This document shows, piece by piece, positions 32,554-62,582 of a stretch of DNA of 64,000 nucleotides; the stretch's first letter is position 1; every line of letters begins with the position of its first letter. Origin of the DNA: Caulobacter sp. (lineage in GTDB: Bacteria > Pseudomonadota > Alphaproteobacteria > Caulobacterales > Caulobacteraceae); NCBI RefSeq assembly GCF_017744445.1, contig NZ_JAGIBH010000011.1, positions 1 through 64,000 of the forward strand, in the 5' to 3' direction. Position numbers and translations under genes: made by a program. Under the pieces are notes generated by a model. That model had not been told where the DNA came from, ran no database searches, and worked only from the letters and a program-made list of their open reading frames with translations.

Positions 32554-33465
32554 TCAGACCCCTCGGCTCAGCCGGTTGCAGAGGTCGTCCAGCTGCTCGA
32601 GCGTCGCGTAGCTGATCGTCAGGGCGCCGCCGGCGCCGCGATGGTCGATCGAGACGTCCAGGCCCAGGACAGACGACAGGTCGGCTTCCAGCGCCTGCGT
32701 GTCGGTGTCCTTCACGCGCGGCGGACGACCGCCCTTGTTCTTGTTCGGCGTCGCGGTCGGCGCTTTGCGGGCCAGGGCCTCGGTCTCGCGGACGGACAGA
32801 CCGCCCTCGATGATCTGCTTGGCCAGGGCGACCGGATCGGCGGCGGCGGCGATGGCGCGGGCGTGACCGGCCGACAGCTCACCGCTGACCAGGTATGACT
32901 GCACCTCGTCCGGTAGGGCCAAGAGGCGCATCGTGTTGGCCACGTGGCTGCGGCTCTTGCCGATGGTCTGGGCGATGTTCTCCTGGGTGCGCTCGAACTT
33001 CTCCATCAGCACTTTGTAGGAAAGCGCTTCTTCCAGGATGTTCAGGTCGGCGCGCTGGACGTTTTCGATGATGCCGATTTCCAGCACCGCCAGGTCGTCC
33101 AGCTCGCGCACCATGATCGGCACGGTGCGCAGGCCCGCGCGTTGGGCGGCGCGCCAACGGCGTTCGCCGGCGACGATCTGGAATTCGCCGGGCGCGCCCG
33201 GCGCCGGACGCACCAGGATCGGCTGCAGGACACCCTTCTCGCGGATCGAGTTGGACAGGTCCTCCAGGTCTTCCTCGCGGAAGGTGCGGCGCGGCTGGTC
33301 GGGATTGCGCTTCAGGATCTCGATCGGCGCTTCGCGCGAACCGGCCGTGTTGTCGCCCGGCGCCTGGGCCGGCGCGGCGTCGACCTCGCCCAGCAGGGCG
33401 GAAAGACCGCGCCCCAGACCACGACGCCCCTCGGAACCACCAGCCTCAGCCACCACAGACTCCAT
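32554..33465 (-). CDS. parB: Chromosome-partitioning protein ParB
   Basis: A 303-residue parS-binding CTP-dependent clamp. The N-terminal LGRGLSALLGEV is the ParA-activating arm. The CTP-binding and spreading domain contains QILVRP-type VLQPILVRPAPG and GERRWRAAQRAGL; the helix-turn-helix is TQENIAQTIGKSRSHVANTMRLLALP, which recognises parS; the C-terminal dimer domain ends LEQLDDLCNRLS. It lies 43 bases downstream of parA. The parS sites that it would load onto are found at 35214-37407 and 49792. Confidence 0.97.
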   Translation of the reverse strand: MESVVAEAGGSEGRRGLGRGLSALLGEVDAAPAQAPGDNTAGSREAPIEILKRNPDQPRRTFREEDLEDLSNSIREKGVLQPILVRPAPGAPGEFQIVAGERRWRAAQRAGLRTVPIMVRELDDLAVLEIGIIENVQRADLNILEEALSYKVLMEKFERTQENIAQTIGKSRSHVANTMRLLALPDEVQSYLVSGELSAGHARAIAAAADPVALAKQIIEGGLSVRETEALARKAPTATPNKNKGGRPPRVKDTDTQALEADLSSVLGLDVSIDHRGAGGALTISYATLEQLDDLCNRLSRGV

Positions 33466-33508
33466 TCTTCTTCTCGTACAAACTCGGGTCGTTACTCAAA
33501 AAATCGGT

Positions 33509-34312
33509 TTAAGCAGCTTGGGCCTGACGGTCGCGCTCGCGGCTGATCACCTCGCGGGCCAGCTTCAGGTAGGCCTGGCTGCCGGCGCACTTCAGGTCAT
33601 ACAGCAGCACGGGCTTACCGAACGACGGCGCCTCCGAGACGCGGACGTTACGCGGGATGACCGCGTCATAGACCTTGTCGCCGAAGTACTCGCGCACGTC
33701 GCGGGCCACCTGCTCGGACAGGCTGTTGCGGCGGTCGTACATCGTCAGCACCACGCCCTGGATCTCCAGGCGCGGGTTCAGGCTGCCACGGATGCGCTCG
33801 ATGGTGCGCATCAGCTGGGTCAGGCCTTCCAGGGCGAAGAACTCGCACTGCAGCGGCACGAACACCGCGTCGGCGGCGGTCATGGCGTTGACGGTCAGCA
33901 CGTTCAGCGACGGCGGGCAGTCGATCAGCACATAGGTGTAGGGCCCGTTGACCCGGATCGACTCCAGGGCGTCGCGCAGGCGGTACGACCGGCGGGCGGT
34001 CTGGCCCAGCTCGATCTCGACGCCCGACAGGTCGGCGTCGGCCGGAATGACGTCCAGGCCGGGCAGCTCGGTCTTCACGGCGGCGTCCACCACCGGCGAC
34101 TCGCCCATCAGCACGTCGTACAGCGTGGTCCGGCGCTGGGTGCGGCCGATGCCCAGCCCCGTGGAACAGTTGCCCTGCGGGTCGGCGTCGATCAGCAGCA
34201 CCCGCTCGCCGCAAGCGGCCAGGGCGGTGCCCAGATTGATGGCGGTCGTGGTCTTGCCGACCCCGCCCTTCTGGTTGGCGATGGCCAGGACGCGGAGAGG
34301 ATTAGCGGACAC
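33509..34312 (-). CDS. parA: Chromosome-partitioning ATPase ParA
   Basis: A 267-residue Walker-type ATPase that forms a nucleoid-bound gradient moving ParB-parS. The deviant Walker A is ANQKGGVGKTTTAINLG, Walker A' is VLLIDADPQGNCSTGLG, and Walker B is YVLIDCPPSLNVLTVNAM. It starts at GTG 34310-34312, overlapping the rsmG stop by 11 bases, so its expression is probably coupled to the mnmG-rsmG transcript. Confidence 0.97.
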   Translation of the reverse strand: MSANPLRVLAIANQKGGVGKTTTAINLGTALAACGERVLLIDADPQGNCSTGLGIGRTQRRTTLYDVLMGESPVVDAAVKTELPGLDVIPADADLSGVEIELGQTARRSYRLRDALESIRVNGPYTYVLIDCPPSLNVLTVNAMTAADAVFVPLQCEFFALEGLTQLMRTIERIRGSLNPRLEIQGVVLTMYDRRNSLSEQVARDVREYFGDKVYDAVIPRNVRVSEAPSFGKPVLLYDLKCAGSQAYLKLAREVISRERDRQAQAA

Positions 34313-34952: not shown

Positions 34953-36798
34953 GGCCGCGCCTCACGTGAGCCAGCAGAGCCGTCAGCGCGCCCGGAGTGA
35001 CACCCTCGATCCGAGCCGCCTGGCCCAAGGTCAGGGGACGCACGCGCTGCAGCTTCTCGCGCACTTCGTTCGACAGGCTGCCGATGTCGGCATAGTCCAG
35101 GTCGGCGGGCAGACGCAGGTCCTCGTCCTTGCGCAGGCTTTCGGCGTCGGCGCGCTGGCGATCCAGATAGCCGGCATAGGCGGCCTCGATCTCGATCTGC
35201 TCGCGGACGTCAGTGTTCCACGTGAAAACCTCGGGCCAGATGCGGCCGAGATCATCCAGGGTCACGTCCGGATAGGCCAGCATGGCGAAGACATCCCGGC
35301 GGACGCCGTCGCTGTTGACCTTGAAGCCGGCCTTCACCGCCTCGTTCGGGGTCAGGGTGACGGAACGGGCGAAGGCGCGGGCCGCCTCCAGGCGATCCTT
35401 CTTCTCGGTCCAGGCCTTGGCGCGGGTCTCGCCCACCACGCCGAGCTCGATCCCACAATCGGTCAGGCGCTGGTCGGCATTGTCGGCGCGCAGGGTCAGG
35501 CGGAACTCGGCCCGGCTGGTGAACATGCGGTACGGCTCGGTGACGCCCCGGGTGACCAGGTCGTCGATCATCACGCCGATATAGGCTTCGTCGCGAGCGA
35601 AGGTGGCGGGCTCCCTGCCCTGCGCCGCCAATGCCGCGTTCAGGCCAGCGACCAGGCCCTGGGCCCCCGCCTCTTCATAGCCCGTGGTGCCGTTGATCTG
35701 GCCGGCCAGGTACAGGCCCGGCAGGCGCTTGGTCTCCAGCGTGGCGTAGAGCTCGCGCGGATCGACATAGTCGTATTCGATCGCATAGCCGTAGCGGATC
35801 ACCTCGACCTTCTCGAGGCCGGGGATCGTGCGCAGGAAGAGCAGCTGCGTTTCTTCTGACACCGACGTGGAGATGCCGTTCGGATAGACGGTGTCGTCGT
35901 CCAGGCCTTCCGGCTCCAGGAAGATCTGGTGGCTCGTCTTGTCGGCGAAGCGGACAACCTTGTCCTCGATCGACGGGCAATAGCGCGGGCCGATCCCCGT
36001 GGCGCGACCGCCATAGACCAGCGACTCGGTGAGCCGCTCGGCGATGATCCGGTGGGTCTCTTCGGTGGTGAAGGTGACGCCGCAGGCGATCTGCGGGACC
36101 TCGATCTTATCCGTCAGGTACGAGAACGGGACCGGCTCCTCGTCGGCCGCCTGGCTCTCCAGCTGGTCCCAGGCGATAGTCTTGCCGTTCAGGCGCGCGG
36201 GCGTGCCGGTCTTCAGGCGGCCCATCTGGAAGTCCAGGCCGTAGAGTCGATCGGCCAGGCCGATCGACGGCTGGTCGCCGACCCGGCCGGCGGGGAGACG
36301 GTCGTCGCCCCGGTGGATGACACCCTTCAGGAAGGTGCCGGTCGTCAGGATTACACGTGAAGCGCGGTACGCCCGCCCTTCCCCATCGACCGCGCCCGCG
36401 ACCTTACCGTCCTCAACGATCAGATCCTCGGCAGCGGCGGCGATGATGTCGAGGTTCGGCGTGGCGGCCAGCTCGGCCTGCATCGCCTCGCGATAGAGCT
36501 TGCGGTCGATCTGCGAGCGCGGGCCACGGACGGCCGGACCCTTCGAGCGGTTCAGCATCCGGAACTGGATGCCGGCCTTGTCGGCCAGGCGGCCCATGAC
36601 GCCGTCCAGGGCGTCGATCTCGCGGACCAGGTGGCCCTTGCCCAAGCCGCCGATGGCCGGGTTGCACGACATCTCGCCGATGGTCTCGAGCTTGTGGGTC
36701 AGCAGCAGGGTGCGCGCGCCCGTACGCGCCGACGCAGCGGCCGCCTCGCAGCCGGCGTGACCGCCGCCGATGACAATGACATCCCAGGTATCGGACAA
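34942..36798 (-). CDS. mnmG: tRNA uridine-5-carboxymethylaminomethyl synthase, FAD subunit
   Basis: A 618-residue FAD enzyme (GidA) that with MnmE modifies wobble uridines. The FAD motif is [21 protein letters not shown]; the conserved [21 protein letters not shown] and [22 protein letters not shown] are present, and the C-terminal helical MnmE/tRNA-binding domain ends [17 protein letters not shown]. The coding region contains a parS site at 35214-35229. It leads the transcript mnmG-rsmG-parA. Confidence 0.97.
35214..35229. promoter_or_regulatory. parS: parS site within mnmG
   Basis: TGTTCCACGTGAAAAC differs from the TGTTNCACGTGAAACA consensus only at the last two or three positions; the CACGTG core is centred at 35221/35222. 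Confidence 0.8.
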
Positions 36799-36816
36799 AA
36801 GACTCGCCTCAATGCG

Positions 36817-36843
36817 AACGCCCCCGGATCGTGCGGGGGCGTT
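36817..36843 (-). terminator. GC-rich hairpin upstream of mnmG
   Basis: AACGCCCCC / GGGGGCGTT stem with a nine-base loop, 19 bases before the mnmG start on the minus strand. No T-run follows, so it may instead be a leader structure or an imperfect terminator for mnmE transcripts. Confidence 0.45.
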
Positions 36844-36893
36844 GGACTCGATCTATACGCCAAACAGGCGAGCGGGTCGATGTGACTCAAAGG

Positions 36894-36909
36894 CGTTTCA
36901 CGTGAAACA
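36894..36909. promoter_or_regulatory. parS: parS site between mnmE and mnmG
   Basis: CGTTTCACGTGAAACA, a 15 of 16 match to the parS consensus, in the gap between the two genes. Confidence 0.92.
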
Positions 36910-36951
36910 CCCCCTCAGCAGCTGTGAGCCCGCTGTGGATAATATAGGGGA

Positions 36952-36967
36952 CGTTTCACGTGGAACA
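36952..36967. promoter_or_regulatory. parS: parS site at the end of mnmE
   Basis: CGTTTCACGTGGAACA; the two halves match parS and the site ends immediately before the mnmE stop codon at 36968. It lies 58 bases from the preceding site, both on the same helical side within about half a turn. Confidence 0.9.
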
Positions 36968-38308
36968 TCACTTGCCGATGCAGAAGGTCGAAAAGACGCG
37001 GCCGAGCACGTCCTCTGGATCCACGCGGCCCGTGATCTTCTCGAGAGCGCGGGCGGCGAGGCGAACATCCTCGGCGGCCAGCTCCACTTCCAGGCCAACC
37101 TCGGACAGAGCGCGAGCCAGATAGTCCTGGGCCTCGCGGAGCCGCTCGGCGTGGCGGAGGCGGGTGGCTGCTGGGAACTCCGCGCCAGACAGCGCGTCGG
37201 CGACATGATCGGCCAGAGCGCTCCGAACCTCATCGACGGCGGTGCTCGAACGAGCCGACAGTCGCAGGACCTTGAGTCCCTGCCCGGTCCACTTTTGAGC
37301 GGCTTCATCCAGCGCTGAGGCGTCGGCGATGTCGGCCTTGTTGAGCATAAACCAATCGCCCGGCCGGATCGCCTCCTCAAGCTTCACTGTATGTTTCACG
37401 TGAAACCCATCGACGACCCAAAGCCTTAGGTCAGCATCTTCAGCCCAGGCCCGCGCCCGGCGGACGCCCTCGGCTTCGATAGCGTCAGCCGTTTCGCGGA
37501 TGCCAGCCGTGTCGGCGACCAGAACCTTGTACCCACCGAGCACCAGTGGAACCTCGATCACGTCCCGGGTAGTACCAGGCGTATCCGTCACGATCGCCGC
37601 GTCGCGCTCGACCAGGCCGTTCAGCAAGGTGCTCTTCCCCGCGTTCGGCGCGCCGACCAGGGCGATGCGGAAACCGTCCCGCACCCGACGACCACGGGAA
37701 ACATCGGCCAGCGCGGCATCGAGTTCGGCGCTCAGCGTCCGCAGACCCGGACGCGCGCGCTCGGCCACCTCCTCCGGCAGATCCTCGTCCGGAAAGTCGA
37801 CCGCCGCCTCTAGCATCGCCAGGGATTGGACCAACAGATCGCGCCACCGGTCATAGCGCTGGCTCAGCGCGCCACCCACCTGCCCCAGGGCCTGCTTGCG
37901 CTGCGCCTCGGTCTCGGCGTCGATCAAGTCGGCGACGCCTTCGGCCTGGGCCAAGTCGAGCTTGCCGTTCTCGAAGGCGCGGCGGGTGAACTCGCCCGGC
38001 TCGGCCAGCCGCAGGCCCAGATCGACCAGGGCTGACAGCAGCGCCTCGACGACAGCGCGGCCGCCGTGCACGTGAAACTCGGCGCTGTCCTCGCCGGTAT
38101 AGCTGGCCGGTCCCTCGAACCGCAGGACCAGCGCCTCGTCCAGCTCAACGCCCTGGTGACGCAGTTTGCGCAGAGCCGCCAGGCGCGGCTTGGGCGGTTT
38201 TCCCGTGAGAGCCTCGACGACCGACAAGGTCGCCGGACCCGAGACGCGCACCACGGCCACCGCCGCTCGCCCGGCCGCGGTGGCCAGGGCGAAGATCGTA
38301 TCGGTCAT
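36968..38308 (-). CDS. mnmE: tRNA modification GTPase MnmE
   Basis: A 446-residue GTPase (TrmE) that works with MnmG on wobble uridines. The N-terminal folate-binding domain begins [22 protein letters not shown]; the G domain has [14 protein letters not shown] (G1), TTRDVIEV (G2), DTAG (G3) and NKAD (G4). The C-terminus CIGK is the conserved functional motif. A parS site lies inside the gene at 37392-37407. The small DUF6489-like gene precedes it by four bases. Confidence 0.96.
37392..37407. promoter_or_regulatory. parS: parS site within mnmE
   Basis: TGTTTCACGTGAAACC, a 15 of 16 match; the coding sense reads through it as part of the HVKHTVKL region of MnmE. Confidence 0.92.
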
Positions 38309-42687: not shown

Positions 42688-43712
42688 GCCGAAGCCTCCG
42701 CGTTGCAGGGACAGTTTTCGGGCCCGCGCCACGCGCCGCCGGGAATGACCCCGCCAGCGTCCAGGGCCTTGCCAACCATGGCGGCCAGGCCGCCGATGAA
42801 CTCAGGCGCGACGCCCAACGCCGGCACGCGGATATAGGGGGCGACCCCTTCCCCTTCGGCCAGCTCGGCGTATTCGTGGTCCAGCTCGACCAGGGTCTCG
42901 ACGTGCTCGGAGACGAAGGCGATCGGGGTGACGATCACGCCCTTACCGTCGGCGCCCGCGCGGCGGATTTCGTCGTCGGTCGAGGGGCCGATCCATTTCA
43001 GCGGCCCGACCCGGCTCTGGTAGCAGACGACCCAGTCCAGATCCGCCGGCAGCTTGGCCGCCACCGCGGCGGCCGTGGCCTCGACCTGTTTCTGGTAGGG
43101 ATCACCGGCCAGAATGACCTTCTCCGGAAGGCCGTGGGCCGAGAACAGCAGCCGTACGCTCGCTGGCGAACCAGCCTTCTCCCAGGTCTCGCGGATCAGT
43201 CGGGCGTGCGCCTCAACCAGGCCCGCCTCGTCCGGATAGCAGCACACCGTCGTCTGGCGGCCCGGACCCTTGTAGGCCGAGCGCCAAGCCTTCAACGACG
43301 AGGCCGTCGTGGTCAGCGAATATTGCGGATAGAGCGGCAGCAGCACGATCTCGTCCGGCGCGAACGCACTGACCTTCTTGGCGGTCTCGCCGGTCAGCGG
43401 GTTCCAGTAGCGCATGGCGATGAAGCACTTGGCTTCAACGTCCGGCAGCGTCTTGGCCAGCTCGGCTTCCAGAGCCCTCGCCTGCTTCTCGGTTTCCGGC
43501 AGCAGCGGCGAGCCGCCGCCCATGATCGCGTAGTTGGCCTTGGCGGTCTTTTCGCGGGTCGTGGCGATCAGGGCCGCGATCGGATAGCGGATGATCGCCG
43601 GCGCGCCGATGATCGAGCCATCCCTAAACAGGTTGAACAGGAACGGTCGCACCGCGCGCGGACCATCGGGCCCGCCCAGATTGAACAGGACGACGGCGAG
43701 CTTCTTGGCCAC
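42684..43712 (-). CDS. hemH: Ferrochelatase
   Basis: A 342-residue enzyme that inserts iron into protoporphyrin IX. The start is GTG 43710-43712 (VAKKLAVVLFNLGGPDGP), sharing one base with the hemE stop; the open frame upstream runs inside hemE. The active-site histidine lies in LLFSAHGLPEKVI, the glutamate in AFVSEHVETLVELDHEY, and YQSRVGPLKWIGPST is typical. The C-terminal CPCN could form an iron-sulphur ligand, though only two nearby cysteines are visible. Confidence 0.94.
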   Translation of the reverse strand: MAKKLAVVLFNLGGPDGPRAVRPFLFNLFRDGSIIGAPAIIRYPIAALIATTREKTAKANYAIMGGGSPLLPETEKQARALEAELAKTLPDVEAKCFIAMRYWNPLTGETAKKVSAFAPDEIVLLPLYPQYSLTTTASSLKAWRSAYKGPGRQTTVCCYPDEAGLVEAHARLIRETWEKAGSPASVRLLFSAHGLPEKVILAGDPYQKQVEATAAAVAAKLPADLDWVVCYQSRVGPLKWIGPSTDDEIRRAGADGKGVIVTPIAFVSEHVETLVELDHEYAELAEGEGVAPYIRVPALGVAPEFIGGLAAMVGKALDAGGVIPGGAWRGPENCPCNAEASA

Positions 43713-44767
43713 TAGCCGCCGACCTTCTGACCGGTGACCCGCTCGAGCACCAGCTCGACATTGGCGATCGGCGTGTCGGGCAGGATGCCGTGACCCAGGT
43801 TGAAGATGTAGGGACCCTGGTTCCACTGTTCCAGCATCTGGTCGACGCGGCGCAGCAGCTCATCCCCGCCGGCGCGCAGCAGCAGCGGATCCAGCGCGCC
43901 CTGGATGGTCTTCGATTTCTGGATCGATTGGCCGAGCTTCGCCGAAGCCGAGGTATCCAGCGCCACGCCCTGCACCGGGACCTTGGCCGCATAGTCCTCG
44001 ACCAGCGTGCCGGCCCCACGCGGGAAACCGAGGATCGGAACCGTCACGCCCCGGGCGCGCAGGCCTTCGATGATCCGAATGTGCGGCTGGGTGACCAGGC
44101 GATCAAACAGCGGCTCGGACAGGCCCTCGGCCCAGCTCTCGAACAGCTTCACGGCCTGGGCCCCGGCGTCGACCTGCATGGCCAGGTAGTCGACCGTCGA
44201 GTCGACCAGCACCTGGATCAGGGCGTCCAGCTTCTCGGGGTTCTGGTAGGCATAGGTCCGCGCGCCGCTGCGATCGCTGGAACCGCCTTCGATCATGTAG
44301 GTCGCCACCGTCCACGGCGCGCCGGCGAAGCCGATCAGGGCCTTGGACGGATCGAGCGCCGAACGAACCCGGGTCAGCGTCTCCCCGACGAGCTTGAGGG
44401 CGTTACCCGCCTCACCGGCCTTTTCGGCCATCGACTCGATCGACGGCATCTCGCCCAGCTTCGGGCCTTCGCCGGCCTCGAACCAGACCTTCTGGCCCAG
44501 CGCGCCGGGGATCAGCAGGATGTCGGCGAAGACGATCGAGGCGTCGTACGGAAACCGCCGCATCGGCTGCAGGGTAACTTCGGCCGCCTTCTCGGGATCG
44601 AAGCAGAACGAGATGAAGTCCGGCGCGGTGGCCCGCACCGCCCGGTACTCCGGCAGATACCGTCCCGCCTGACGCATGAACCAGACCGGCGGGTTCGCGT
44701 GCGTCTCTCCGGCCAGGGCCGAAAGGAATTTAACCGTTTGTTGGGACTTTGGGGCCGATGACGTCAT
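43712..44767 (-). CDS. hemE: Uroporphyrinogen decarboxylase
   Basis: A 351-residue enzyme converting uroporphyrinogen III to coproporphyrinogen III. Signatures are PPVWFMRQAGRYLPEYRAVR near the start and IGFAGAPWTVATYMIEGGSS; the conserved aspartate is in YDASIVFADIL. Its ATG at 44765-44767 faces Cori, so its promoter lies inside the origin. In Caulobacter crescentus hemE is the origin-flanking gene and its strong promoter overlaps origin elements, which fits. Confidence 0.97.
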   Translation of the reverse strand: MTSSAPKSQQTVKFLSALAGETHANPPVWFMRQAGRYLPEYRAVRATAPDFISFCFDPEKAAEVTLQPMRRFPYDASIVFADILLIPGALGQKVWFEAGEGPKLGEMPSIESMAEKAGEAGNALKLVGETLTRVRSALDPSKALIGFAGAPWTVATYMIEGGSSDRSGARTYAYQNPEKLDALIQVLVDSTVDYLAMQVDAGAQAVKLFESWAEGLSEPLFDRLVTQPHIRIIEGLRARGVTVPILGFPRGAGTLVEDYAAKVPVQGVALDTSASAKLGQSIQKSKTIQGALDPLLLRAGGDELLRRVDQMLEQWNQGPYIFNLGHGILPDTPIANVELVLERVTGQKVGG

Positions 44768-44836
44768 GACCGGGTTAAAGCCCGGCCCGAGCTTCGGCTC
44801 AAGCCCGTAGGACCCTTAAGACCCTTCCTTCATATC

Positions 44837-44851
44837 TTAATAAGAATTTAA
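44837..44851. promoter_or_regulatory. CtrA box 1 of Cori
   Basis: TTAA TAAGAAT TTAA, perfect nine-base-type CtrA site in the AT-rich side nearest hemE; it may also regulate the hemE promoter. Confidence 0.85.
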
Positions 44852-44959
44852 GAAATGAAAGAGGATGTGACTGGGCAATTGCATAGTGGGGAAAACGCCT
44901 GACGGGCGAGTGACTCCCACACTCCATCCCCCTTTGCCCCCAGGCCTTCCCACATGTGG

Positions 44960-44974
44960 TTAAGGGTCTGTTAA
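44960..44974. promoter_or_regulatory. CtrA box 2 of Cori
   Basis: TTAA GGGTCTG TTAA, perfect spacing of seven bases. Confidence 0.88.
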
Positions 44975-45007
44975 TCATGTGGATGGTCCGGCAGCGCTTT
45001 GAAGACC

Positions 45008-45022
45008 TTAATGAATTCTTAA
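45008..45022. promoter_or_regulatory. CtrA box 3 of Cori
   Basis: TTAA TGAATTC TTAA, perfect spacing; lies 48 bases from box 2 and contains an EcoRI-like GAATTC in the spacer. Confidence 0.88.
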
Positions 45023-45213
45023 CTCGCGATGGCGGGACAAAGACCCCTCACGGGACTCTGTCCGCAGCTTTGGACAGCCGGGATTCACTTGATGGGGGAT
45101 GCGGGGCGAGCCTGGGGATGATACGCGAGCAATGCGACCGTTGATCACAGCGGCGCCGTGTCACGACGTCGAAAGGGCCTTTTGGCGCCCAGGCGTCCCC
45201 AGGGGCGAGGCAA

Positions 45214-46119
45214 GTGGTTAAGCAACCGTTAACGGATGATCCACAGGAGAGTCTGGGCCAGGGGGACGGCGAACGGCTGCCGCCGCGCTTCGCCACCTAC
45301 TTCCATATTCACCTGGTGTCGGACTCCACGGGCGAGACCCTGAACGCCATGGCGCGCGCGGTGTGCGCCCGTTTCACCGATATCCTGCCTATCGAACACA
45401 TCTACGCGTTGGTTCGTTCCACCCGGCAACTTGACCGGGCATTGGAAGAGATCGGCGGCGCGCCGGGTGTCGTCATGCACACCATTGTCGATCCCGGCCT
45501 GCGCGCGGCGCTGGAAGAAGGCTGCCGCAAGCTGGAAATGCCCTGCATCGCGGCGCTGGATCCGGTGATCAGCGCCATGTCGCGCTATCTGGGCGCGCGG
45601 ATCTCGACCCGCGTCGGCGCCCAGCACGCTTTGACCAACGACTATTTCGACCGCATCGAGGCCCTGGATTACGCCATCGCCCACGATGACGGCCAAGGCG
45701 GCCAGGACCTGACCCAGGCCGATGTCATCCTGGTCGGCGTGTCGCGCACCTCCAAGACCCCGACCTGCATCTATCTGGCCCATCGGGGCGTGCGCGCCGC
45801 CAATGTGCCGCTGGTGCCGGGCCGCCCGCCGCCGCCCGAGCTGTTCGAGCTGAAGAACACGCTGATCGTGGGCCTGATCACCTCGCCCGACCGGCTGATC
45901 CAGATCCGCCGCAACCGCCTGCTCTCCCTCAAGGAGAATAGAGAGAGCGACTATGTGGACGGCGACGCCGTGCGCCAGGAGATCATCGCCGCTCGCCGGC
46001 TGTTCGAGCGCATGAACTGGCCGACCATCGACATCACCCGGCGCTCGGTCGAGGAGACGGCGGCGGCGATCATCAATCTCTTGTCCGGTGGTCGCGGCAA
46101 GGTCGAGGTCCTGGGATGA
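45214..46119 (+). CDS. ppsR: Pyruvate, phosphate dikinase/PEP synthase regulatory kinase-phosphatase (DUF299)
   Basis: A 301-residue bifunctional kinase/pyrophosphorylase that switches PEP synthase or PPDK on and off through a threonine. The conserved YFHIHLVSDSTGETLNAMARAV start and the P-loop LVGVSRTSKTPTCIYLA are present, with PLVPGRPPPPELFEL downstream. GTG 45214 is the only start codon upstream of the conserved core in this frame, after an AGGGGCGAGG ribosome binding site; its first codons hold a CtrA box and a DnaA box. It is the first gene rightward of Cori and overlaps maf by four bases. Confidence 0.9.
   Translation: MVKQPLTDDPQESLGQGDGERLPPRFATYFHIHLVSDSTGETLNAMARAVCARFTDILPIEHIYALVRSTRQLDRALEEIGGAPGVVMHTIVDPGLRAALEEGCRKLEMPCIAALDPVISAMSRYLGARISTRVGAQHALTNDYFDRIEALDYAIAHDDGQGGQDLTQADVILVGVSRTSKTPTCIYLAHRGVRAANVPLVPGRPPPPELFELKNTLIVGLITSPDRLIQIRRNRLLSLKENRESDYVDGDAVRQEIIAARRLFERMNWPTIDITRRSVEETAAAIINLLSGGRGKVEVLG
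45218..45232. promoter_or_regulatory. CtrA box 4, overlapping the ppsR start
   Basis: TTAA GCAACCG TTAA lies from codon 2 to codon 7 of the ppsR reading frame and four bases before the DnaA box. Confidence 0.85.
45237..45245. promoter_or_regulatory. DnaA box (G-box type) of Cori
   Basis: TGATCCACA, one base from the E. coli TTATCCACA consensus and the form described as a G-box in Caulobacter. It is within the ppsR coding region. Confidence 0.8.
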
Positions 46120-49791: not shown

Positions 49792-49807
49792 TGTTCCACG
49801 TGAAATC
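49792..49807. promoter_or_regulatory. parS: parS site on the right side of Cori
   Basis: TGTTCCACGTGAAATC matches the parS consensus at about 14 of 16 positions, 15 bases before the epimerase ATG and 4.6 kb to the right of the origin. Confidence 0.82.
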
Positions 49808-60520: not shown

Positions 60521-61894
60521 TTACGCGCTCTCGGCGACGCCTTCGTCCGAAGCCCCCAGCAGGGCCATCTGCAGGCGCGAGCGGTCGCGGCGGGCCGCTT
60601 CCAGGGCGCCTTCGGCCAGGGCGGCTTCCGAGGTGAGGCGTTCGATCGTGGCTTGCAGGTCGGAGATCTTCTCCTCGTGCTCGCGACGCAGCTGGTCCTG
60701 GGCTTCCTGCATGGCGTCCAGGCGCTGGCGCAGTTGCTGCGAGCGTTCCTCGGCGCGCTTGAGGGCCTTGTCCTGGGCGACGGCGCCCTTGGCCAGCTGG
60801 TCGGCGCGCTCGATGGCGGTGGCGCGGGCGGTGTCGACGCCGGCGTGGCGCTGACGCAGGCCGTCCGACTCTTCTTCCAGCGTACGGATGCGGTCCAGGG
60901 CGCGCTCCAGGGCGACATTGAGGTCGCCAGCGCGGCGCTCGACGGCCTTCTGGTGGGCCGAGGATTCAGCCAGACGGGCCGAGATCTGGCCGTTCATCTC
61001 TTCCAGCTTGTCGGCGCGGCCGGTGGCGGTCTCCAGGCGGGTCTGCAGGGCCGAGATCTCGGCGCGCGAGGCTTCGACCTGGCTTTCCAGGCCACGGATG
61101 ACGCGGCCGCTGTCGGTCTGGGTGGCGTGCAGGGCGTTCTCGATCGCCTGGACGCGGGCGCGCTCGGCGGCGACCTGGGCCTCGAGGTCGGTCTCGATGC
61201 GCGACAGGCGGGCCACGTCCAGGCCGGCCTGGTCGACGCGCTTCTTCAGGGTCGCGGCTTCTTCGCCCAGCAGGGCGTTGTCCTGGTTTGCGCGGGCGAG
61301 AGCCGCCTCGGCGTCGCCGCGACGGGTATCGATGTCCTGGGCCTGGGTGCGCAGGCCTTCGACGTCCTGCACCAGGTGCTCGATGCGGGCGGTGGCGTCG
61401 CGCAAGGAGGCGTCAAGGCTGGAGACCTTCAGGTCCGACTGCAGCAGGGCGTTGCGCAGGCGGTCGATCTCGAGGGCGTTGTCTTCCAGCGCCGCGTCCT
61501 GAGTCTGGCGGCGGGCGTCGGATTCGCCAAGAGCGGTTTCGGCGGCGGCCAGGCGGGCGCTGACTTCGCGCTCCTCGGCCTGGATGTGGGCGACCTGGCG
61601 CTGGGCCTGGTCATAGTTGGCGCGCAAGGCGATCAGCTCGGCGTGCTCGGCGCGGCGTGCTTCGAACTCCTGGCCGACGGGGCCGCGGATCTCGGCGATC
61701 AGCGGCTCGATGGCCTTCAGGTGCTCCATCACGCGGCCGATGCTGTCGAGGCCGCCGTGGATGGTCTCGTAGCGTTGGCCGATGGCCTGGGTGGACTCGA
61801 TCTGGTGCTGAACGGTTTCGTTCTGGACGTCATCGCCCAGGACGGTCGGCTTGCCGTTCTTGTTCTCGCGCGAATTCTTCGACAGCAGTCTCAT
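60521..61894 (-). CDS. creS: Crescentin, intermediate-filament-like curvature determinant
   Basis: A 457-residue coiled-coil protein, the length of crescentin. The N-terminus MRLLSKNSRENKNGKPTVLG and the following GLDSIGRVMEHLKAIEPLIAEIRG are the crescentin head segment. Long heptad arrays follow from about residue 80 to 430 with a stutter-type layout (QTQDAALEDNALEIDRLRNALLQ, ARIEHLVQDVEGLRTQAQDIDT, AALARANQDNALLGEEAATLKKRVDQAGLDVARL), and a short tail GASDEGVAESA. Crescentin lines the inner curve of the cell and gives Caulobacter its shape; this identifies the genus. It ends in its own terminator and stands alone. Confidence 0.97.
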   Translation of the reverse strand: MRLLSKNSRENKNGKPTVLGDDVQNETVQHQIESTQAIGQRYETIHGGLDSIGRVMEHLKAIEPLIAEIRGPVGQEFEARRAEHAELIALRANYDQAQRQVAHIQAEEREVSARLAAAETALGESDARRQTQDAALEDNALEIDRLRNALLQSDLKVSSLDASLRDATARIEHLVQDVEGLRTQAQDIDTRRGDAEAALARANQDNALLGEEAATLKKRVDQAGLDVARLSRIETDLEAQVAAERARVQAIENALHATQTDSGRVIRGLESQVEASRAEISALQTRLETATGRADKLEEMNGQISARLAESSAHQKAVERRAGDLNVALERALDRIRTLEEESDGLRQRHAGVDTARATAIERADQLAKGAVAQDKALKRAEERSQQLRQRLDAMQEAQDQLRREHEEKISDLQATIERLTSEAALAEGALEAARRDRSRLQMALLGASDEGVAESA

Positions 61895-62039
61895 CTAGCC
61901 CACCTTCGCCCCGTGCGAGCCCGCCGCGTCCTGAACGACGCTCTTGCGGAAGCCGCGAATCTCTTACCCAGAGGTTAACAACTTAGTTTACGGACAAGAT
62001 GAATGTCGAGGGGCGCACACCGCGACCGGGCGTCGCGGA
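61895..62039. other. creS upstream region
   Basis: Between the creS start and the ahpD stop. The minus-strand sequence near 61970-61990 (TTGTCCGTAAACTAAG...GTTAACC) could hold a creS promoter, but spacing to a -10 element is unclear. Nothing else is recognisable. Confidence 0.35.
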
Positions 62040-62582
62040 CTAGGTTAAAACGCCCGAAAATGGGGGATGATCCACAGGTTCGGTCGCCAGGACCCGAGCG
62101 ACGGCGTTCACCACGGCGCCGATTCGTAAGGCGGCCTGGATCTGGACGGGCTCCACGCCCCTTCGCCGCAGCTCCGCTTCGTGGCTGTCGAGGCAGGCGC
62201 CGCAGCCGTTGATCGCCGACACCGCCATGCAGCACAGCTCGTAGGCCGTCGAGTGGTCGCGGCTGAAACGCAGGCGCGACGGCAGGTGTTCGTACTCCCG
62301 CGCGGTTATCAGATGGACGGCGCGGAAATAGACATTGGTCATCGCCATGGTCGCCGCCGCTGTCTTGGCGTCCTCGAAGGCTTCCGGCGTCAGGCCTGCC
62401 TCGTGCGCGGCGTCGTTGACGGCTTTCAGGGTCCTTGGCTCGCCGACCGCGAGGGCGCTGGCGACGAAGCAGCTCCACTTGGCGGTTTCGTCCAGGACGG
62501 TCTCTTCGGCCAGGACCTCGAGGTTGCGGGCCATGGCGTGGGCGTAGGCGGGCAGAATGGCGCGCAGGGCCTCGATCGACAT
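62040..62582 (-). CDS. ahpD: Alkyl hydroperoxidase AhpD
   Basis: A 180-residue AhpD-fold peroxidase. The redox pair is CGACLDSHEAEL (CxxC followed by the histidine), with the helical ALVGEP-type AVGEPRTLKAVNDAAHEAGL and RAVHLITAREYEHLPSRLRF segments. ATG 62580-62582 begins MSIEALRAILPAYA; the longer open frame is a low-complexity extension. It is divergent from oxyR, which probably activates it under peroxide stress. Confidence 0.9.
   Translation of the reverse strand: MSIEALRAILPAYAHAMARNLEVLAEETVLDETAKWSCFVASALAVGEPRTLKAVNDAAHEAGLTPEAFEDAKTAAATMAMTNVYFRAVHLITAREYEHLPSRLRFSRDHSTAYELCCMAVSAINGCGACLDSHEAELRRRGVEPVQIQAALRIGAVVNAVARVLATEPVDHPPFSGVLT

What the first reader, a model, noticed from the sequence alone, without database searches (positions are those of the whole stretch)
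44768..45245. Replication origin Cori with CtrA and DnaA sites
Four perfect TTAA-N7-TTAA boxes, a G-box type DnaA site and an AT-rich segment lie between hemE and ppsR, the known Caulobacter origin locus. The layout can be compared with the five CtrA boxes of C. crescentus: here I find four perfect boxes and one half box, so one site may have decayed or been repositioned.
Basis: partly seen in the sequence, partly recalled or inferred. Interest (0 to 1): 0.7.

Follow-up and report, generated by a model that had tools for sequence, protein, structure and literature searches.

The report
Caulobacter chromosome replication origin (Cori)
This is most likely the place where a Caulobacter species starts copying its chromosome, built like the well-studied origin of Caulobacter crescentus; it is an ordinary relative of a known thing, though its fixed internal spacing and one unexplained conserved stretch are worth a test.

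Summary
The hemE-ppsR gap carries the window's only four perfect TTAA-N7-TTAA boxes (none expected by shuffling; 14 in the 5.34 Mb assembly), one TGATCCACA G-box and the least stable 50-bp stretch of the window. It aligns with the same gap in other Caulobacter genomes. In the 30 compared in full (own included), box e starts 19 bp before the DnaA box in 30 of 30, and boxes b to e span 378-381 bp although parts between are poorly conserved. The 'lost' fifth box is not peculiar to this genome: box a is imperfect in all 30, one mismatch at best (9 of 30); here its left half remains in place. So: an orthologous Cori, a new member of a known kind. The published origin-encoded RNA CcnA should lie between boxes d and e (about 45040-45227). 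Inside it an 18-bp run (45138-45155) is invariant in 20 of 20 close relatives and matches no site named in the texts I could see. Covariation gives CcnA no convincing support as a folded RNA; the constraint looks like origin DNA. Origin activity, CtrA/DnaA binding and CcnA transcription in this species are inferred.

The parts
43712..44767 (-). hemE, uroporphyrinogen decarboxylase, left border of Cori
   Evidence: PF01208 E 3e-102
44774..44807 (.). GTTAAAGCCCGG (44774) and GGCTCAAGCCCG (44796), conserved repeated motif next to hemE; GCTCAAG (44797-44803) invariant in 20 of 20
44816..44830 (.). degenerate CtrA box a (TTAA-N7-CCTT), 21 bp before box b
   Evidence: alignment with relatives where it reads TTAA-N7-CTAA
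44816..44865 (.). least stable 50-bp duplex of the window: candidate unwinding element
   Evidence: nearest-neighbour scan of the whole window
44837..44851 (.). CtrA box b, perfect (perfect in 25 of 30 genomes)
44887..44892 (-). W-box type DnaA hexamer (TGGGGA on + strand)
   Evidence: W-box consensus TCCCCA from PMC4285127
44960..44974 (.). CtrA box c, perfect (19 of 30); overlaps the position of the C. crescentus IHF site (10 of 12 letters)
44978..44984 (-). DnaA-type heptamer ATCCACA (TGTGGAT on + strand) beside box c; relatives read TGTGGA, TGGGGA or close variants
   Evidence: (column cflank)
45008..45022 (.). CtrA box d, perfect (21 of 30); position expected for the ccnA promoter box
45040..45227 (+). 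inferred ccnA (CcnA ncRNA, 182 nt in C. crescentus), ends uncertain by about 10 nt
   Evidence: positions of boxes d and e against the published ccnA layout, PMC8959179; alignment A1; no transcript data here
45113..45118 (-). W-box, TGGGGA on + strand, invariant in 30 of 30
45138..45155 (.). unassigned element CCGTTGATCACAGCGGCG, longest invariant run of the 20-genome alignment
   Evidence: altered in the more distant group
45196..45201 (+). W-box TCCCCA, invariant in 30 of 30; also the only CCCC in the inferred ccnA of this genome
45218..45232 (.). CtrA box e, perfect (29 of 30)
45237..45245 (+). DnaA G-box TGATCCACA (exact in 28 of 30, CGATCCACA in 2), 19 bp from the start of box e in 30 of 30
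45214..46119 (+). ppsR (kinase/pyrophosphorylase), right border
   Evidence: PF03618 E 1.4e-90
32554..34312 (-). parB (32554-33465) and parA (33509-34312)
   Evidence: PF02195 E 1.7e-37, AAA_31 E 9e-63
35214..37407 (.). parS-like sites at 35214 (3 mismatches), 36894 (1), 36952 (2) and 37392 (1), 7.4-9.6 kb from Cori
   Evidence: expected 0.02 for the whole window; the pattern was recalled

Best explanation
The interval 44768-45248 is Cori, the chromosomal replication origin of this Caulobacter species. DnaA loads at the G-box (45237) and spreads over the weak W-boxes to open the AT-rich stretch at about 44816-44890. Phosphorylated CtrA, bound at boxes b-e, excludes DnaA and keeps non-replicating cells silent; the closest contact is box e, which starts 19 bp before the G-box. 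A CtrA-activated RNA, ccnA, probably starts behind box d and ends at box e. Shown here: site content, synteny, fixed spacing and orthology. Inferred from C. crescentus: binding, competition, unwinding, ccnA transcription.
For: Four perfect boxes against none expected and 14 genome-wide. 43 of 61 genomes searched in the genus match by DNA, own genome included. In the 30 genomes compared in full: b-c 122-123, c-d 48-49, d-e 208-210, b-e 378-381, e to G-box 19 bp in 30 of 30. In 26 further genus genomes found through ppsR (27 searched), TCCACA stands at the same offset in 22: 17 of 20 with a perfect box, 5 of 5 whose box e has one mismatch, 0 of 1 without a box near ppsR. That is 52 of 56 in all. 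Lowest duplex stability of the window. parS-like cluster and parAB 7-12 kb away, as in C. crescentus where parS is within 8 kb (PMC4468827). GC skew averages -0.016 in the 45 kb to the left and +0.013 in the 45 kb to the right, and the cumulative minimum of the 269-kb contig is at 50075. Two single-contig relatives (G027, G040) have their record start inside this sequence. In G051, where ppsR lies elsewhere, a perfect box stays next to hemE.
Against: No functional data. GC skew is weak: the minimum misses Cori by 4.8 kb and other split points on the contig score as well or better; on the single-contig relative G047 the best step fit lies 220-320 kb from Cori (correlation 0.58 against 0.41 for Cori), and 26 of 259 tested places fit better than Cori. 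Only one exact TGATCCACA is present, against two G-boxes reported for C. crescentus. The assembly holds two dnaA loci 81% alike where six relatives have one full match each, so it may be mixed; the window itself lies on one contig.
Confidence: 0.95

Rival explanations
1. The boxes are only promoter sites: a CtrA-regulated divergent hemE/ppsR/ccnA control region, and replication starts elsewhere.
For: CtrA activates roughly 100 genes through such sites (abstract start of PMC11264516, listing); [quoted passage not shown] crescentus (PMC8959179); GC skew is weak and imprecise.
Against: Spacing fixed over 381 bp with W-boxes and G-box at fixed places; AT minimum; parS-like cluster near by; the C. 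crescentus origin has the same site types and hemE beside it (PMC4468827 and PMC8959179).
Confidence: 0.03
2. Most of the conservation between boxes d and e comes from the ncRNA CcnA acting on ctrA and gcrA mRNAs, not from the origin.
For: CcnA is reported to be 182 nt long, its promoter deletion is almost entirely rescued in trans, and its CCCC loop matters (PMC8959179). The consensus fold of all 30 sequences is somewhat better than column shuffles (10 of 200 as good, z -2.06).
Against: In the 20 close relatives 1 of 43 predicted pairs shows a two-sided change and the covariation term is -0.19 of -44.2 kcal/mol. The fold is no better than shuffles for the 20-row alignment (36 of 200 as good) or for the single sequence (z -0.90). 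The hairpin formed by the invariant element keeps 6 of 6 pairs in 21 genomes but only 3-4 of 6 in the other 9. The stretch just behind box d is the least conserved of 22 segments (58% mean pairwise identity) while two W-boxes and the box e/G-box block reach 98-100%. The only CCCC of this ccnA is the W-box TCCCCA, which origin function alone would keep.
Confidence: 0.15

Closest known systems
Cori of Caulobacter crescentus (C. vibrioides)
   Same: hemE beside it, CtrA boxes b-e, G-box beside box e, TCCCCA/TGGGGA W-boxes, AT-rich region, box c over the IHF position, room for ccnA between two CtrA boxes, parS within about 8 kb.
   Different: Box a keeps only its left half; box c centre differs at 2 of 12 letters of the published IHF site; one exact TGATCCACA (two G-boxes reported). 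dnaA is not in the window; in the five relatives where both places are known it lies about 40-60 kb from Cori. In NA1000 it is about 50 kb closer to the origin than in K31 (PMC4221894, passages).
   Same: Perfect boxes b and e in 8 of 9, DnaA box 19 bp from box e, two W-boxes, b-e distance 378-381 bp.
   Different: Box c degenerate in 9 of 9; box d reads CTAA-N7-TTAA in 8 and is lost in G004, where b is degenerate and e has one mismatch; the 18-bp element begins CCGTTTAACACAGG in 8 and CCGTTTATCACAGG in G004.
CcnA ncRNA (CCNA_R0094)
   Same: Position between two CtrA boxes and room for a 182-nt transcript.
   Different: Not shown to be transcribed here; no convincing structural covariation.

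Membership tests
Caulobacter Cori | located between hemE and ppsR (hemE beside Cori: PMC8959179; ppsR as the right neighbour: recalled) | tested here: met
Caulobacter Cori | five CtrA sites, four of them conserved among freshwater species (PMC4468827) | tested here: met
   four perfect plus a degenerate box a at the orthologous place
Caulobacter Cori | two G-boxes TGATCCACA | tested here: inconclusive
   one exact copy; a second ATCCACA beside box c differs in the first two letters; which site is the other published G-box could not be checked
Caulobacter Cori | five W-boxes TCCCCA | tested here: inconclusive
   three exact hexamers in the gap: 44887, 45113, 45196, the last two in 30 of 30; the other two published places are not known to me
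Caulobacter Cori | IHF site overlapping box c (TAACGCTCTGTT) | tested here: inconclusive
   10 of 12 letters at 44961-44972; exact in 3 of 30 genomes
Caulobacter Cori | AT-rich unwinding region | tested here: met
   least stable 30-, 50- and 80-bp segments of the window
Caulobacter Cori | autonomous replication and replication start in vivo | not testable with these tools
   needs marker-frequency sequencing or a plasmid assay
Caulobacter Cori | CtrA and DnaA bind and compete | not testable with these tools
   needs ChIP-seq or footprinting
CcnA ncRNA | 182-nt transcript from behind a CtrA box, ending in a CtrA box | tested here: inconclusive
   geometry fits (d-e start distance 210 bp); no Rfam match; no expression data
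CcnA ncRNA | conserved fold with CCCC in Loop A | tested here: inconclusive
   no convincing covariation, a weak hint with 30 rows; CCCC present but it is also the W-box

The most novel reading that the evidence does not exclude
Cori is a rigid, phase-locked nucleoprotein scaffold: box e and the DnaA box are fixed 19 bp apart and b-e is held to 378-381 bp while weakly constrained spacers drift. The invariant 18-bp element at 45138-45155 is a further, uncharacterised protein-binding or bending site of the origin. What looks like conservation of the CcnA RNA, its CCCC loop included, is mostly conservation of origin DNA.
Probability: 0.3. Interest if true: 0.55.

Novelty: new member of a known kind. 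Interest (0 to 1): 0.35.

Why it matters
It gives a comparative map of the best-studied cell-cycle-controlled bacterial origin. Among 30 genomes the outer boxes b and e, the DnaA box at a fixed offset and two W-boxes are the stable core; boxes a, c and d turn over. It also makes a test possible: whether the CcnA RNA function and the origin function of the same DNA can be told apart, because in this genome the RNA's only CCCC is a DnaA W-box.

Tried and rejected
RNA fold of the inferred ccnA as the cause of conservation: RNAalifold on 20 rows (that alignment runs from box d to just past the G-box), column shuffles of the ccnA part on 20 and 30 rows, a single-sequence fold and the element's hairpin in 30 genomes; not convincingly supported (10 of 200 shuffles as good with 30 rows is the only hint in favour). 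Rfam: nothing at E <= 1 in 44600-45400. Chromosome-wide GC skew as an independent locator: 40 samples of 20 kb from the relative G047; too weak to place the origin. dnaA as a neighbour: not in the window. The element's core TTGATCACA together with 'Caulobacter' in papers: 2 hits, neither about Cori by title or abstract start. Primary Cori papers asked for and not held: PMC305652, PMC193745, Shaheen 2009; Taylor 2011 was not asked for. I saw none of them and relied on passages of PMC4468827, PMC4285127, PMC6399470, PMC4221894 and PMC4287350, and on passages plus sections 6 and 12 of PMC8959179. A test of CcnA pairing with ctrA and gcrA leaders was not done. The hemE loci L031-L110 (80 kept of 588 relatives, capped) were only scanned for motifs.

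Full report
What was checked. The window is the first 64000 bases of contig C22 (269066 bases) of an assembly of 5.34 Mb in 170 contigs; that it is a Caulobacter follows from its relatives, some of which have named records. Four perfect TTAA-N7-TTAA in 396 bp is far beyond chance (0 in 100 shuffles; 14 in the genome against 3 for the reversed pattern; Poisson about 5e-14).

Orthology. A DNA search with 44700-45300 found a match in 43 of 61 genomes searched in the genus, own genome included. Loci were kept for 30. Twenty of these (own included) align over the whole gap; the other ten were added in later alignments. G001, G045 and G056 carry the exact published C. crescentus IHF/box c letters TAACGCTCTGTT; I had no genome labelled C. 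crescentus to read, so the comparison with that species rests on this and on papers.

Boxes. Perfect copies among 30 genomes: a 0, b 25, c 19, d 21, e 29. Box a has one mismatch in 9 of 30 (TTAA-N7-CTAA), keeps a TTAA left half in 13 of 30, and is cut by a deletion in G058, G050 and G038; in the nine most distant genomes its alignment is uncertain. The five-box count of the literature therefore probably includes an imperfect box a (PMC8959179 speaks of five full boxes, so this needs checking against the primary papers). The review PMC4468827 (passages) says four of five sites are conserved among freshwater Caulobacter, which agrees with what is seen here.

Geometry. Box e start to G-box start is 19 bp in 30 of 30; b-e is 378-381 bp in 30 of 30. 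In G004 boxes b, c and d are degenerate, so its distances are read from the alignment only. In 26 further genomes reached through ppsR (27 searched, one without a match), TCCACA sits at the same offset after the last box in 22; the others are G028 and G034 (ATGCACA), G060 (shifted by one) and G051 (no box near ppsR). Of the 20 with a perfect last box, first-to-last box distance is 379-387 bp in 11, 358-361 bp in 6, and 3 have a single perfect box; I took the last box as box e without further proof. Related sequences share ancestry, so these counts are not independent events.

In C. crescentus a 182-nt RNA, CcnA, is transcribed from behind one CtrA box and ends in another, and contains three weak DnaA boxes (PMC8959179: passages and sections 6 and 12; also PMC4287350 passages). 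By geometry this is box d to box e here. The alignment shows very uneven constraint (mean pairwise identity among 20 genomes): 58% for 45023-45084, 59% for 45170-45182, 100% for each of the two W-box stretches 45113-45120 and 45194-45202, 99.5% for 45138-45157, 98% for 45215-45248; boxes b, c and d have 94, 86 and 90%. Most predicted pairs in the conserved part never vary, so they say nothing for or against a fold; the covariation term is about zero. The shuffle test gives no support with 20 rows (36 of 200 as good) and a weak hint with 30 rows (10 of 200). The published active loop is a CCCC; in this genome the only CCCC of the inferred ccnA is the W-box TCCCCA, which is present in 30 of 30. 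Other CCCC runs exist in a number of relatives, so which one is Loop A could not be settled from the text.

Unassigned element. CCGTTGATCACAGCGGCG (45138-45155) is the longest invariant run in the 20-genome alignment, longer than the run at box e (14). G006 keeps it too; of the nine other distant genomes eight begin CCGTTTAACACAGG and G004 CCGTTTATCACAGG. It contains an inverted repeat, 6 of 6 pairs in 21 genomes, but 3-4 of 6 in those nine, which speaks for a DNA site rather than an RNA hairpin. I found no name for it in the passages read, and a paper search with nine of its letters gave nothing on Cori by title or abstract start. The primary papers were not available, so it may already be described.

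Surroundings. parB, parA and gidA and a cluster of parS-like sites lie on the hemE side. dnaA is on other contigs; in five relatives where both positions are known (G047, G003, G058, G032, G042; two of them counted across the record start) it is about 40-60 kb from Cori. The right side of the window carries a crescentin gene.

Verdict. An orthologous Cori, known kind. The mechanism is carried over from C. crescentus: CtrA-DnaA exclusion and weak W-boxes (PMC4468827; PMC4285127). All functional claims for this species remain untested.

Noticed in passing
G000 contigs C91:5627-6109 and C83:10761-11243 (loci L133, L134): Two full-length dnaA loci, 81% identical in DNA and 82% in protein, where six relatives have one full-length match each (G032 also a weak partial one); ppsR and parB are single. 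The assembly may hold DNA of a second Caulobacter, or there is a true second dnaA.
   Followed up: partly
G000 contigs C115, C126, C80 (loci L135-L137): Three GcrA-family matches over the Pfam cut-off in the assembly.
   Followed up: no
window 36894-36967: A perfect E. coli-type DnaA box TTATCCACA (36934-36942, minus strand) lies between two parS-like sites; a review says DnaA binds parS in C. crescentus (PMC6399470, passages).
   Followed up: no
window 60521-62076: A crescentin gene (PF25217, PF19220) with a one-mismatch CtrA box at 61964 just upstream and a TGATCCACA at 62068.
   Followed up: no
G051 C1:94719-96216 and C1:4381923-4382759 (L207, L209, L194): hemE with a perfect CtrA box stays together while ppsR lies elsewhere in the record (about 0.3 Mb away if circular): a rearrangement seems to have broken the gap at the origin. 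The hemE match also has one in-frame TGA.
   Followed up: partly
window 44912, 45054, 45082, 45249: Four GANTC sites (CcrM target, recalled) in 44768-45260 against 1.17 per kb over the window.
   Followed up: no
window 49792-49807: An outlying parS-like site (3 mismatches) on the other side of Cori.
   Followed up: no
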